NCBI GenBank assembly: GCA_903870545.1
Contig: CAIQDI010000026.1
Location: forward strand, 1 to 64,000
Reading direction: 5' to 3'
DNA: 64,000 bases
Source of the DNA: an uncultured Pseudomonadota bacterium
GTDB lineage: Bacteria > Pseudomonadota > Gammaproteobacteria > Methylococcales > Methylomonadaceae
Both the position numbers and the translations under genes were made by a program. The notes below the pieces were generated by a model, which made no database searches, had not been told where the DNA came from, and worked only from the letters and a program-made list of their open reading frames with translations. Below are positions 1 through 64,000 of this stretch, in pieces (positions within the stretch are counted from its first letter, which is position 1; each line of letters opens with the position of its first letter).

Positions 1-717
1 CCGCGCAAATCAGTTGGAACGATGACCGAATTTCAGGCGACAATTTGACGGTGAGCAGCAGCGCGGCGAGTTTTGCCAATAAAAACGTCGGCATCGCGAA
101 ACCGATTACCGTTTCTGGCATTACGTTGGCGGGAACGGATGCAGGCAATTACACCTTTAATACTTCAGCGACTACAGCGGCTGATATTACGGCGAAAACG
201 TTGGCGATTAGCGCGACAGGAATTCCCAAAATTTACGACGGCTTGACCGCCGCGCAAATCAGTTGGAACGATGACCGAATTTCAGGCGACAATTTGACGG
301 TGAGCAGCAGCGCGGCGAGTTTTGCCAATAAAAACGTCGGCATCGCGAAACCGATTACCATTTCAGGAATTACGTTGGCGGGAACCGATGCGAGCAATTA
401 CACCTTCAATACTTCAGCGACCACGACGGCTGATATTACGGCGAAAACGTTGGCGATTAGCGCAACAGGCAGCAACAAAATTTACGACGGTTTCACCGCC
501 GCGCAAATCAGTTGGAACGATGACCGCATTGCGGGCGACAATTTAACACTGAGCAGCAGCGCGGCGAGTTTTGCCAATAAAAATGTCGGCATCGCGAAAC
601 CGATTACCGTTTCTGGCATTACGTTGGCGGGAGCGGATGCGGGCAATTACACCTTCAATAATGCCACTTCGACCACCGCTGATATTACTGCGAAAACGTT
701 GGCGATTAGCGCAAATT
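1..717 (+). repeat. Tandem 249-bp repeat (three copies) in the YDG exoprotein
   Basis: The motif CCGCGCAAATCAGTTGG recurs at 1, 250 and 499, giving an exact period of 249 bp (83 codons). Copies 1 and 2 are identical over at least their first 60 bases. Copy 3 has more differences and runs into the MBG-like segment near 717. The array probably continues upstream of the window. The near-identity suggests recent duplication or homogenisation by recombination. Confidence 0.92.
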
Positions 718-41097: not shown

Positions 41098-43920
41098 ATG
41101 GTTTTGAAAGATATTCTACAGCGACCTGTGTTCATCAGAATGTTGCACATTATTGGGCTGGCGGCAGCGTATTTTATTGCAGGAAAATTTGGTAACTTGC
41201 TTGCTATTCCACCCGGTTATGCGTCCGCTATTTTTCCGCCTTCTGGCATTGCTTTGGCAGGAATTCTACTTTATGGAAATCGTGTTGGCTGGGGAATCTG
41301 GCTCGGCGCGTTTTTACTCAACGCGCTCATTCCGGTGGTGGCAAATAATCTTTCCGAAAGCCTAAATTCCGCGCTGATTTCAACAGCCATTTCTACCGGT
41401 GCAACACTTCAAGCTCTTGTTGGTGCGTATTTAGTAAAACGATTTGCTGGATTTCCGAACGGATTGGATAATCAAAAAAACATTTTTTCATTTATATTTT
41501 ATGGCGGTGTGCTGGGGGCGTTGGTGAATTCAACGCTCTCGGTTCCACTAATGGTCGCAACAGGTCGAATGCCGTCTGAAACATTTCTGTTCAACTGGCT
41601 GGCTTGGTGGGGCGGCGATGCCTTAGGCATTATTGTCTTTACGCCGCTGGTTTTGGTGTGGATGTCACCACATAATCCCGTGTGGCAAGATCGGCGATTG
41701 GCGATGACGCTGCCTATTTTCACCATGTTTTTTTTGACGGTTTTCGCCGTTTTTTATGAAATAGAAAGCCGCAATACACAGATAAAAATGGACTTTGAAC
41801 AACAGACGAAACAATTGAATGCGGCTTTGAAATCGTCTATCGCTGCTCAATTTAACGTGTTGCAGTCGCTGAACAGTTTGTATATTTCTTCAGAAACCGT
41901 GTCCGAGAAACAATTTAATTCCTTTACCGAATCCGTGTTAAATTCATCCACAAGCATTCTCAGCATTGGATTTGCGCCCATTATTGGTACGGCGGAACGT
42001 ACCGCTTATGAAAAAAACTTACAGCTCGAAGGTGTTGATGATTTTCAAATTACCGAAATGAATGCCGACAAAAAACTGGTGCGTGCTGAAAATCGTGCAG
42101 AATATGCGCCCATTCGTTATGCCAAACCTGATCAAGCGAACGAAGGAGTCCATAATTTTGATTTGTATTCCACGGTAGAGCGGCATGACGCACTTTTCAG
42201 AGCAAAAGACACGGGCGAAATTTCCATGACAAGCAAAGTGACCTTGATTCAGAATCAAGGAAAATACACGGGAACGGTGGCGTATCTGCCGATTTATCAT
42301 TATGAATTGCCACACCACAATTTAGCAGAACGTCGCAAAGCCATTTCAGGCTACATTGTGGGAGCTTTTAGAAGTAATGAACTGGTTTCAGCCGCTCTCA
42401 AAAATCAGAATTTAGCGGGATTGTCTTATCAACTAATTGATGAAAATGCACCTGTAACAGAGCAGATGCTATTTGCCAGCGACGAACAGGAGTTCAAACC
42501 GTTTGTCCTACAAGAAAAAGGTCTGTTTCGCGATACAAAAACGTTCATCAGCCACGCAGAATTTTTAGTCGGTGGGCAAGTGTGGCGGTTTGAAATCGTA
42601 CCTACCCTTGATTATTTTAATCAAAGTCGTTTTCGTAATGCCTGGTTGATTCTGTTTGTTGGCGTTTTGCTAACGCTCATCACGACAGTCGCTGCGCTGA
42701 TTTCTTCTGGTCGTAAACACCAACTTCAACAAATGGTCGATGAACGAACGGCAGAACTCACGGTGATGAATAGAGAGCTTATGTTTGAGCGCGATGAAAA
42801 AGAAGCCAGTGCTACCGAATTGATTGTTGCAAATGAAAAATTGGCGGCAGTGAATGAAGAATTTGCCGCTACCAATGAAGAACTCATTTTTCAAGGCTAC
42901 GAAAAAGCAAAGCGGGCTGAAGAACTTTTAATTGCGAATAAGGAACTGGCTTTTCAAAACGCTGAAAAAGAAAAACGGGCTGAAGAACTGGTGATTGCGA
43001 ATGAACAATTAGAATTTCAAAATACGGCAAAAGAACGACGTGCAATGGAATTGATTATTGCCAATGAAGAGTTGGCGTTTCAAAACACTGAAAAAGAAAA
43101 GCGGGCGGTTGAACTGATTCAATCTTACGAACAAAATTCACTGTTGAATTCCCAAGTCAATCAAATGCAAAAGTTGGAAAGTATTGCACGACTGACTTCG
43201 GGAATTGCTCACGATTTTAATAATATTTTGTCGTGTATGTTGGGCTACAACGAAATGAATGTGTACATCAGTGACGATATGACCGATAACGCATTAAAAA
43301 TTGAACTCGAACAAAATACCAAACAAATTTCTGACGCAGGTCAACGAGCGGTGGCGTTAATTAAAAAAATGATGACGTATTCGCGCCAAGATACGCATAA
43401 AGAAAGCATTGAGGTAAGACCGACGCAGGAAGCGATTGACGAAGTGGCTAGCATGTTACGCCCGGCATTAACCAGTCGAGTCAATCTGCAAGTAGAATTA
43501 AAATCTAATCAAGATATTCAAATTGATGTGATTGATTTGCATCAAATTCTGACAAATTTGGCAGTGAATGCGCGAGATGCGATGAAAGAGCGCGGCGGCA
43601 TGATTACGATTGCGTTGAATACCGCCACGAATGTGTCAGCTCAATGTGTCGCCTGCGCTGAAATGATTCAAGGCGATTTTATTGAATTAAGCGTATCGGA
43701 TAATGGAACGGGCATTGAACCCAAAATTATTCATCGTCTTTTCGATCCGTTTTTCACCACCAAACCGCAAGGCGAAGGTACTGGTTTAGGATTATCCACC
43801 GTCATCGGCATGGTGCATTCTGCAAACGGACACGTTCTGATTGATTCAAATATGAGCGAAGAAAAGCACGGCACGACGTTTAGATTATTATTTCCACAAT
43901 CATTGAATCTTGCTGCGTGA
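41098..43920 (+). CDS. MASE1-CHASE sensor histidine kinase
   Basis: 940 aa membrane kinase. An N-terminal MASE1 sensor (about 10-225, several membrane helices, GNLLAIPPGYASAIFPPSG) is followed by a periplasmic CHASE domain (~235-510), another helix (~525) and a long coiled-coil (~545-695) with three 21-residue repeats. The kinase core has H-box His705 (GIAHDFNNIL), N-box NLAVNARDAM, G1 DNGTGIEP and G2 GTGLGLSTVIGM. There is no receiver domain and no response regulator next door. The stimulus is unknown. rlmG begins at its stop codon. Confidence 0.9.
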   Translation: MVLKDILQRPVFIRMLHIIGLAAAYFIAGKFGNLLAIPPGYASAIFPPSGIALAGILLYGNRVGWGIWLGAFLLNALIPVVANNLSESLNSALISTAISTGATLQALVGAYLVKRFAGFPNGLDNQKNIFSFIFYGGVLGALVNSTLSVPLMVATGRMPSETFLFNWLAWWGGDALGIIVFTPLVLVWMSPHNPVWQDRRLAMTLPIFTMFFLTVFAVFYEIESRNTQIKMDFEQQTKQLNAALKSSIAAQFNVLQSLNSLYISSETVSEKQFNSFTESVLNSSTSILSIGFAPIIGTAERTAYEKNLQLEGVDDFQITEMNADKKLVRAENRAEYAPIRYAKPDQANEGVHNFDLYSTVERHDALFRAKDTGEISMTSKVTLIQNQGKYTGTVAYLPIYHYELPHHNLAERRKAISGYIVGAFRSNELVSAALKNQNLAGLSYQLIDENAPVTEQMLFASDEQEFKPFVLQEKGLFRDTKTFISHAEFLVGGQVWRFEIVPTLDYFNQSRFRNAWLILFVGVLLTLITTVAALISSGRKHQLQQMVDERTAELTVMNRELMFERDEKEASATELIVANEKLAAVNEEFAATNEELIFQGYEKAKRAEELLIANKELAFQNAEKEKRAEELVIANEQLEFQNTAKERRAMELIIANEELAFQNTEKEKRAVELIQSYEQNSLLNSQVNQMQKLESIARLTSGIAHDFNNILSCMLGYNEMNVYISDDMTDNALKIELEQNTKQISDAGQRAVALIKKMMTYSRQDTHKESIEVRPTQEAIDEVASMLRPALTSRVNLQVELKSNQDIQIDVIDLHQILTNLAVNARDAMKERGGMITIALNTATNVSAQCVACAEMIQGDFIELSVSDNGTGIEPKIIHRLFDPFFTTKPQGEGTGLGLSTVIGMVHSANGHVLIDSNMSEEKHGTTFRLLFPQSLNLAA
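42919..43107 (+). repeat. Three tandem 63-bp units in the kinase coiled-coil
   Basis: Units start at 42919, 42982 and 43045 and encode 21-residue blocks of the type EELLIANKELAFQNAEKEKR plus Ala, exactly three heptads each. Partial units flank them on both sides, so the array could expand or contract without loss of helix register. Confidence 0.85.
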
Positions 43921-62754: not shown

Positions 62755-62965
62755 TTTTTAAACCGGCTTTATCGCCAAAATATGAAGGCAAAACATGTTA
62801 AAAACGATTTGACCGAAACATTTTTAGGAGAGAGTCATCAGCCACTATCGGTGTGGATTTTACAGTTTAAGTTCGATATAAATTTGAAAAAAACTTTAAG
62901 TGATTTCCCACAATTATCGGTGTATCCTTGCCGCAATTTTTTTAATTTTTACAGGAATTTAGTCA

Positions 62966-64000
62966 ATGAAAATCAAAGTCAGTCAGTCAGTCAGTAAAAA
63001 GCGTAGTTTGTTTGCATTAACCCTTGCAAGCCTTATTTTTCCAACAGCCAGTTTTGCTGTTGACGGTTTCAACTCATGCAACGCATTACTCACCGCTGGC
63101 ATTTACAACGTTTCGCAATCAAGCAGCTCCACTGATTCAGAAACCATAAAAAAAGCAAATTTTTGTGCTTATGATTACAGCAAAGTCGCAAGTGGCTCTT
63201 CACAGGCACAGGGAATTGAAGCCTCTTATGGTCCTATAAGCGGCGGCTACAATACATCTGGTAGCAGTTCGTCAATCAATGAAAAACAATCAAGCGTTTG
63301 TGGCGGAACATTTGGTTATGACAAATGGATTTCTAAAGCCTCGCAATTTGCACAAAACGTAAATCAAGGTTCTTTAGATGCTTGGAATAGATGCCAAGCC
63401 TTAAATCAACAAGGCGTGAATTTCGATTTGCAAGTTGACCAAAGTATGCAAGGCGCAACGGTTACACTTTCAACAACCTCATCAGGTTCAACCATCAATT
63501 TTAATGGCTTAGACCAAATCGGTTTAGGTCGCTCAATTTGTACTACAACACGCAATTCAAAAACGGGTTCATCAACGGGCAAAGTCTTAACGGTTGATAA
63601 AACAACGTCGCTTTCTTTTAATGCAGGTAGCAAATTAACCATTACTTGCGAACGTCAAATGTCAGGCGATGGCAAAGGCGGTTTATTTGCCGACGCGCAA
63701 ACGTTGGTTTTCAACACCAGCGCAGGTTCTTATCAAGTGCCAATGGTCACAATTGGTTTGTCGCCTCGTGTGTCGGTTGAACAAGCGGTTGCTAATCTTC
63801 AAGCAGATACAAATACAAAAATTGCTCAAGTGAAAACTGATAATCAAGCAGCAATTGCTAATGCTTCACCAGCTAATTCAATCAATTCATTAAATAGTTC
63901 CGTTAGTTCCTTGCAATCAACTGTCAATCAATTAGCTTCAGCACCTTCATCGAAAATGTGGTGGAAGGTTGGTAATAATGGAACCGTTAGTTGTGATATA
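62966..64000 (+). CDS. Unrecognised secreted protein, 5' part (continues past window)
   Basis: ATG at 62966 opens a frame that remains open for 345 codons to the window end. A signal peptide is clear (KKRSLFALTLASLIFPTASFA, cleaved before VDGF). The mature part has about seven Cys (FNSCNALL, ANFCAYD, SSVCGGTFG, WNRCQAL, SICTTTR, TITCERQ, VSCDI), many Ser/Thr/Gln/Asn and a late segment with coiled-coil features (VEQAVANLQADTNTKIAQVK). I recognise no family. A tail-fibre-like or surface-adhesin role is speculation. Codons 4-10 contain an AGTC repeat. ACAGGAATTT before the ATG holds the ribosome site. Confidence 0.75.
   Translation, partial: MKIKVSQSVSKKRSLFALTLASLIFPTASFAVDGFNSCNALLTAGIYNVSQSSSSTDSETIKKANFCAYDYSKVASGSSQAQGIEASYGPISGGYNTSGSSSSINEKQSSVCGGTFGYDKWISKASQFAQNVNQGSLDAWNRCQALNQQGVNFDLQVDQSMQGATVTLSTTSSGSTINFNGLDQIGLGRSICTTTRNSKTGSSTGKVLTVDKTTSLSFNAGSKLTITCERQMSGDGKGGLFADAQTLVFNTSAGSYQVPMVTIGLSPRVSVEQAVANLQADTNTKIAQVKTDNQAAIANASPANSINSLNSSVSSLQSTVNQLASAPSSKMWWKVGNNGTVSCDI
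62977..62995 (+). repeat. AGTC tetranucleotide repeat (4.75 units) after a start codon
   Basis: AGTCAGTCAGTCAGTCAGT lies within codons 4-10 of the secreted protein that starts at 62966. Each unit gained or lost shifts the frame, the arrangement seen in phase-variable surface genes. Confidence 0.9.

What the first reader, a model, noticed from the sequence alone, without database searches (positions are those of the whole stretch)
62966..63010. Possible phase-variation repeat at the start of a secreted protein
Nearly five AGTC units directly after the start codon of an exported, Cys-containing protein is the classic layout for slipped-strand switching of surface antigens. A different frame (from 62782) also runs through the repeat and ends at 62997.
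Basis: partly seen in the sequence, partly recalled or inferred. Interest (0 to 1): 0.6.

Follow-up and report, generated by a model that had tools for sequence, protein, structure and literature searches.

The report
Short frameshift repeat in methanotroph signal peptide
A 19-base AGTC repeat sits in the export signal of a secreted protein of an uncultured freshwater methane-eating bacterium, where gaining or losing one unit would switch the protein off; relatives carry longer AGTC or GCAA repeats at many similar genes, so these free-living bacteria probably gamble on surface traits as some pathogens do.

Summary
Window 62977-62995 is a perfect AGTC run of 4.75 units, the only such repeat in the window and far beyond chance. 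It lies in codons 4-10 of a 391-residue exported protein that is in frame (ON). One unit more or less gives 11 or 16 residues. The repeat is short, and a 53%-identical homologue in another species lacks it, so this copy may switch rarely or not at all. Read data were not available.

The genome is a gammaproteobacterial methanotroph. In its genus AGTC and GCAA arrays recur in two places. One is inside signal-peptide coding DNA (lectin-like proteins, TonB-dependent receptors), with ON and OFF examples. The other is in a conserved 5' leader: start codon, array, spacer, intrinsic terminator, then a gene for a secreted or signalling protein. In 14 of 16 leaders exactly one frame stops early and two reach the terminator; no shuffle of 1000 exceeded 11. 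That is the layout of the proven Streptococcus gallolyticus Pil1 switch. Orthologous leaders differ in unit number and predicted state. The window gene is a modest member of a known kind; the leader family is the more interesting result. No switching is shown.

The parts
62977..62995 (+). AGTC tetranucleotide array, 4.75 perfect units, encoding VSQSVS in the n-region of the signal peptide
   Evidence: chance level
62966..64000 (+). ORF of exported protein (391 aa; the stop lies outside the window at contig position 64138-64141), in frame through the array (ON)
   Evidence: ON/OFF table
62966..63058 (+). Sec-type signal peptide MKIKVSQSVSKKRSLFALTLASLIFPTASFA; cleavage site placed by eye
   Evidence: sequence; hydrophobic core LFALTLASLIF
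62953..62956 (+). AGGA ribosome-binding site within a stretch conserved in the G001 homologue
   Evidence: alignment
62995..62997 (+). TAA met immediately after the array when one unit is gained (11-aa product)
   Evidence: and sequence
63018..63020 (+). TAA met when one unit is lost (16-aa product)
   Evidence: and sequence
62782..62997 (+). Overlapping 71-aa ORF in another frame; not conserved, probably spurious

Best explanation
The AGTC run is a short translational contingency tract. Slipped-strand mispairing adds or removes 4-nt units inside the signal-peptide coding sequence. At 4.75 units (also 1.75 or 7.75) the 391-residue exported protein is made; at any neighbouring number translation stops within a few codons of the tract. 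An OFF state would probably also lower the downstream PD40-propeller gene through polarity. Shown: the tract, the reading frames, the stops, the two-gene arrangement in three species, and recurrent longer AGTC/GCAA tracts in the genus at equivalent positions in ON and OFF phase. Inferred: slippage, polarity, and that this short copy still switches, probably at a low rate.
For: Perfect run far above chance. Unit length not a multiple of 3, with early stops in both other frames. Same position, n-region of a signal peptide just after the start, in lectin-like (Laminin_G_3) proteins of the genus: G010:C37 20.5 units ON, G010:C96 24.5 units OFF, G014:C118 5.75 units OFF. GCAA arrays of 12.5-25.75 units at the start of TonB-dependent-receptor-type genes in four species. 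Three further array loci in the same genome: C18 12.25 units, C27/C28 at least 19 units, C17 GCAA 24 units. GTCA x6 found in no other genus among 29 sampled in the family. Precedent: meningococcal autB, AAGC repeats (3-19 units) in signal-sequence DNA (PMC5118866); AGTC right after a start codon in H. influenzae (PMC2651432).
Against: Only 4.75 units, so the mutation rate is expected to be low. The G001 homologue lacks the repeat and the G004 copy lacks its N-terminus, so no orthologous length variation could be seen for this gene. No reads or second strain were available. The gene is in only 3 of 18 species of the genus.
Confidence: 0.6

Rival explanations
1. A nascent or shrunken microsatellite that is now effectively fixed in the ON state: it arose by the slippage common in this genus but is too short to switch at a useful rate, and serves only as a hydrophilic n-region of the signal peptide.
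For: Shortest of the AGTC arrays found with the 16-base seed; a homologue exists without it; frame kept ON. One leader, G010:C54, is down to 2.5 units, so tracts do decay.
Against: H. influenzae analysis treats 3 tetranucleotide units as the threshold and expected maximum (PMC2651432), and meningococcal autB varies among 3-19 units. The 5.75-unit tract of G014:C118 is OFF relative to its own conserved start, so short tracts in the genus have changed length.
Confidence: 0.33
2. Chance or codon-usage coincidence: the residues VSQSVS happen to be written as AGTC units.
For: The peptide is tolerable in a signal-peptide n-region.
Against: 6912 synonymous ways to write VSQSVS, 0.002 such runs expected per genome, and the same unit recurs at many loci in the genus but not elsewhere in the family.
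Confidence: 0.02
3. The array belongs to an upstream leader ORF (from 62782) and acts as a phase-variable attenuator, like the leader arrays elsewhere in the genome.
For: The 62782 frame passes a weak hairpin at 62918-62933 and ends in the array; leader arrays exist in the same genome.
Against: Here the array is downstream of the hairpin and inside the exported ORF; the conserved leader sequence and terminator are absent from the window; the upstream ORF is not conserved in G001.
Confidence: 0.03

Closest known systems
autB/autA of Neisseria meningitidis (AAGC repeats in signal-sequence DNA; PMC5118866)
   Same: Tetranucleotide run just after the start codon, within the signal-sequence coding region of an exported protein; ON/OFF by frame; low unit numbers (3-19) occur
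   Different: Unit AGTC; unrelated protein (no Pfam match); free-living methanotroph; switching not demonstrated
AGTC and GCAA/CAAG SSR loci of Haemophilus influenzae (PMC2651432)
   Same: Same two unit sequences (AGTC, GCAA) and 5'-coding placement
   Different: H. influenzae targets listed there are mainly LPS enzymes, adhesins and methyltransferases; here secreted lectin-like, RTX and RCC1 proteins, TonB receptors and signalling proteins
Pil1/Pil3 phase-variable attenuator of Streptococcus gallolyticus (PMC3894217)
   Same: For the leader loci elsewhere in this genus, not the window: SSR inside a leader-peptide ORF, one frame stopping early and two reaching a premature intrinsic terminator
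   Different: Pentanucleotide GCAGA at pilus operons of a Gram-positive, against GTCA or GCAA tetranucleotides in a conserved leader before many gene types in a Gram-negative

Membership tests
Slipped-strand (SSR) translational contingency locus | Perfect short tandem repeat longer than expected by chance | tested here: met
   19 nt perfect; none of 16 nt or more in 40 simulated windows
Slipped-strand (SSR) translational contingency locus | Unit length not divisible by 3, located early in an ORF, with early stops in the other two frames | tested here: met
Slipped-strand (SSR) translational contingency locus | Unit number differs between strains or orthologues of this gene | tested here: inconclusive
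   G001 homologue has no repeat; G004 copy lacks its N-terminus. Other loci of the genus do differ between species
Slipped-strand (SSR) translational contingency locus | Mixed unit numbers within a population, or reversible expression | not testable with these tools
   no reads, no culture
Phase-variable transcription attenuator (S. gallolyticus Pil1 type), for the window locus | Array inside a leader ORF followed by an intrinsic terminator before the gene | tested here: not met
   Array is inside the exported ORF; no leader-type terminator in the window and no leader-model match in it
Phase-variable transcription attenuator (S. gallolyticus Pil1 type), for the leader loci of the genus | Leader ORF containing the SSR, premature intrinsic terminator, frame-dependent stop before or at/through the terminator | tested here: met
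   (14 of 16 leaders with 1 early and 2 late frames; shuffle mean 5.6, maximum 11)
Phase-variable transcription attenuator (S. gallolyticus Pil1 type), for the leader loci of the genus | Leader translation raises transcription read-through | not testable with these tools
   needs reporter or RNA data

The most novel reading that the evidence does not exclude
A genus of free-living freshwater methanotrophs runs a genome-wide phase-variation programme built on interchangeable GTCA and GCAA arrays. Besides frame switches in signal peptides, it uses a conserved leader (start codon, array, spacer, intrinsic terminator) as a portable three-frame attenuator in front of secreted RTX, RCC1 and lectin-like proteins and of a histidine kinase, a response regulator and a GGDEF protein, so that whole signalling outputs switch at random.
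Probability: 0.6. Interest if true: 0.68.

Novelty: new member of a known kind. Interest (0 to 1): 0.5.

Why it matters
SSR phase variation is known mainly from host-adapted bacteria. A methane-oxidising lake bacterium with switchable surface and signalling genes would mean that clonal populations of a climate-relevant guild are heterogeneous in attachment, phage sensitivity or nutrient uptake. The leader family, if confirmed, would turn the one SSR attenuator found in the papers searched here (Pil1/Pil3) into a widespread regulatory device that also occurs in a Gram-negative.

Tried and rejected
Pfam and PHROGs on the 391-aa protein gave no match. The scan of genome contigs with the protein found no relative. 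Rfam on leader loci gave no leader family above its curated cut-off. The backwards-pattern control is uninformative for AGTC, since CTGA is the same array on the other strand; it is valid for GCAA, where the control gave 0 hits in 18 genomes. The idea that the array is a chance string was rejected, as was the idea that it is itself a leader attenuator. Weak leader-model hits (E above about 1e-6; L059-L063, L069-L071, L074, L075) lack an array and were discarded as ordinary terminators and tRNA contexts; one weak hit, L080, does have an array (GCAA 11.75 units) and was kept. L072, strong but without an array or a downstream ORF, looks like a decayed leader.

Full report
OBSERVATION. Window 62977-62995 reads AGTCAGTCAGTCAGTCAGT, 4.75 perfect AGTC units. 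It is the only perfect repeat of period 2-9 with at least 14 nt and 3 copies in the 64-kb window. Third-order Markov sequences of the same composition gave 0.05 period-4 runs of 15 nt or more per 64 kb and none of 16 or more in forty trials; the simple expectation for 19 nt is 0.002 per genome. The array starts in codon 4 of an ORF beginning at ATG 62966, preceded by ACAGGAATTTAGTCA, and the ORF runs beyond the window to contig position 64138 (391 aa). The product starts MKIKVSQSVSKKRSLFALTLASLIFPTASFA, a typical Sec signal peptide, the array coding for VSQSVS in its n-region. The second frame from 62782 to 62997 is there but its upstream region is not conserved.

FRAME LOGIC. Changing the unit number on paper: 4.75, 1.75 and 7.75 units leave the protein in frame; 5.75 gives an 11-residue peptide (TAA at the very end of the array) and 3.75 a 16-residue one. 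The assembled copy is therefore ON.

THE PROTEIN. No Pfam or PHROG family matches the window protein. Homologues occur in 2 of 17 other species of the genus and in none of 23 genomes of other genera tested. G001 (53% identity) lacks the repeat: MKFHSNPILALTIASIIFPTVSVADGF. The stretch before its start codon is conserved with the window, which fixes the start codon. The G004 copy lacks its N-terminal part near a contig end. All three are followed directly by a gene for a PD40-propeller protein. The C-termini differ: G004 ends in a phage tail-collar domain (PF07484; PHROG tail fibre families), G001 and the window in other short domains. This looks like an exported stalk with exchangeable tips (inference).

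THE ORGANISM. The genome carries pmoA (PF02461, 430 bits), so it is a methane or ammonia oxidiser and, with its gammaproteobacterial gene content, most likely a methanotroph. Records of related genomes that surfaced in a DNA pattern search are MAGs labelled uncultured proteobacterium. I infer fresh water from the sample codes and from my own knowledge of such studies.

ARRAYS IN THE SAME GENOME. A search for AGTC x4 found C18:38416-38464 (12.25 units) and the ends of contigs C27 (19 units) and C28 (16.75 units). C28 ends with the upstream half and C27 begins with the downstream half of the same kind of leader, so they are probably one locus broken in assembly (inference). C17 has GCAA x24.

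ARRAYS IN THE GENUS. AGTC x4 occurs in 6 of 18 genomes, GCAA x6 in 6 of 18 with a backwards control of zero. In 121 genomes sampled from the family, GTCA x6 is confined to this genus and GCAA x6 to 3 of 29 genera.

PLACEMENT A, INSIDE SIGNAL-PEPTIDE CODING DNA. Three lectin-like proteins (Laminin_G_3) share GGAGATTCAAAAATG followed a few codons later by AGTC arrays: G010:C37 20.5 units, ON; G010:C96 24.5 units, OFF; G014:C118 5.75 units, OFF. GCAA arrays of 15.75, 12.5, 25.75 and 13.5 units start TonB-dependent-receptor-type genes in G004, G007, G010 and G009 (the L083 and L085 products were assigned by similarity of their first residues). The window locus belongs here.

PLACEMENT B, A CONSERVED LEADER. 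Seven leaders were aligned, modelled and sought in the genus. Eighteen real leaders in seven species carry either GTCA or GCAA at exactly the same place; one of them (G010:C54) is down to 2.5 units. Order: in most, a ribosome-binding-site-like stretch and ATG or TTG; the array; a spacer with AAATT and GTCAA conserved; a hairpin AACCCGC..GCGGG with a T run; then the gene. Genes include RTX, RCC1 and Laminin_G_3 proteins, an ALTTAQ-repeat protein, a response regulator, a histidine kinase, a MASE1-PAS-GGDEF protein, an Lcl_C protein, and a lipoprotein with a PD40/RTX protein. In GCAA leaders the three frames typically stop at +3 or +21, at +46 or +49 (the terminator starts at +49), and at +89 (behind the T run). 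Over 16 leaders, 14 have exactly one early and two late frames; dinucleotide shuffles of the spacers gave 5.6 on average and at most 11 in 1000 trials. The leaders are related to each other, so this is not 16 independent tests. Orthologous leaders differ: G011:C193 13 units (predicted ON) against G004:C87 18 units (OFF); G000:C18 12.25 units (OFF) against G010:C40 6.25 units (ON). A leader of the same design, found by its GCAA array and not by the model, precedes a putative secreted protein in G117, another genus (stops +16, +54, +101; terminator at +58).

MECHANISM. For the window: slipped-strand change of frame in the signal peptide, with probable polarity on the PD40 gene. For the leaders: translation in a long frame keeps the terminator from forming; in the short frame transcription stops. 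The latter is demonstrated for Pil1 in S. gallolyticus, where 22 GCAGA repeats stop 39-49 nt before the terminator and 21 or 23 stop next to or within it (PMC3894217); here it is an inference from anatomy. The former has an exact precedent in meningococcal autB (PMC5118866) and AGTC precedent in H. influenzae (PMC2651432). Paper searches combining methanotrophs or Methylococcales with phase variation or tetranucleotide repeats found nothing relevant, within the limits of that library.

LIMITS.

VERDICT. The repeat is real and is best read as a short, currently ON contingency tract, perhaps nearly frozen. Its main value is that it leads to a genus-wide system of which the leader attenuators are the surprising part.

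Noticed in passing
G000:C18:38303-38464, C27:1-190, C17:15519-15701 and loci L052-L058, L064-L068, L073, L076-L080: Conserved 5' leader family: start codon + GTCA or GCAA array + spacer + intrinsic terminator before genes for secreted or signalling proteins; a probable phase-variable attenuator family.
   Followed up: yes
L081, L083, L084, L085: GCAA arrays (12.5-25.75 units) at the start of TonB-dependent-receptor-type genes in four species of the genus.
   Followed up: partly
L087-L094 (genomes G145 and G045, another genus): Eight GCAA arrays in short ORFs just upstream of genes, many of them apparently PAS/phytochrome-like sensor proteins; no terminator of the leader type noticed, suggesting translational coupling instead.
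   Followed up: partly
L095 (G117): A leader of the same design (GCAA x10, terminator at +58) in a third genus, before a 603+ aa putative secreted protein.
   Followed up: partly
window 62966-64000 and homologues L016:7221-8411, L017:2531-3481: Homologous exported proteins with unrelated C-terminal tips, one a phage tail-collar domain, always followed by a PD40-propeller gene.
   Followed up: partly
window 1-714: Tandem 249-bp repeats, 2.9 copies, 91% matches, running off the window's start; probably part of a large repetitive surface protein.
   Followed up: no
window 42901-43119: 63-bp tandem repeats (3.5 copies) in coding-like sequence.
   Followed up: no
L010:2635-2720 (G000:C18): Two CRISPR-DR4 direct repeats 58 bp apart (Rfam RF01317).
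   Followed up: no
L072 (G000:C28:18598-18709): Leader-like sequence without an array and without a downstream ORF; looks like a decayed copy.
   Followed up: no
L030:631-726 (uncultured Nitrosomonadales MAG): GTCA x24 in the middle of a gene for what looks like a membrane acyltransferase, currently out of frame; another candidate contingency locus.
   Followed up: no
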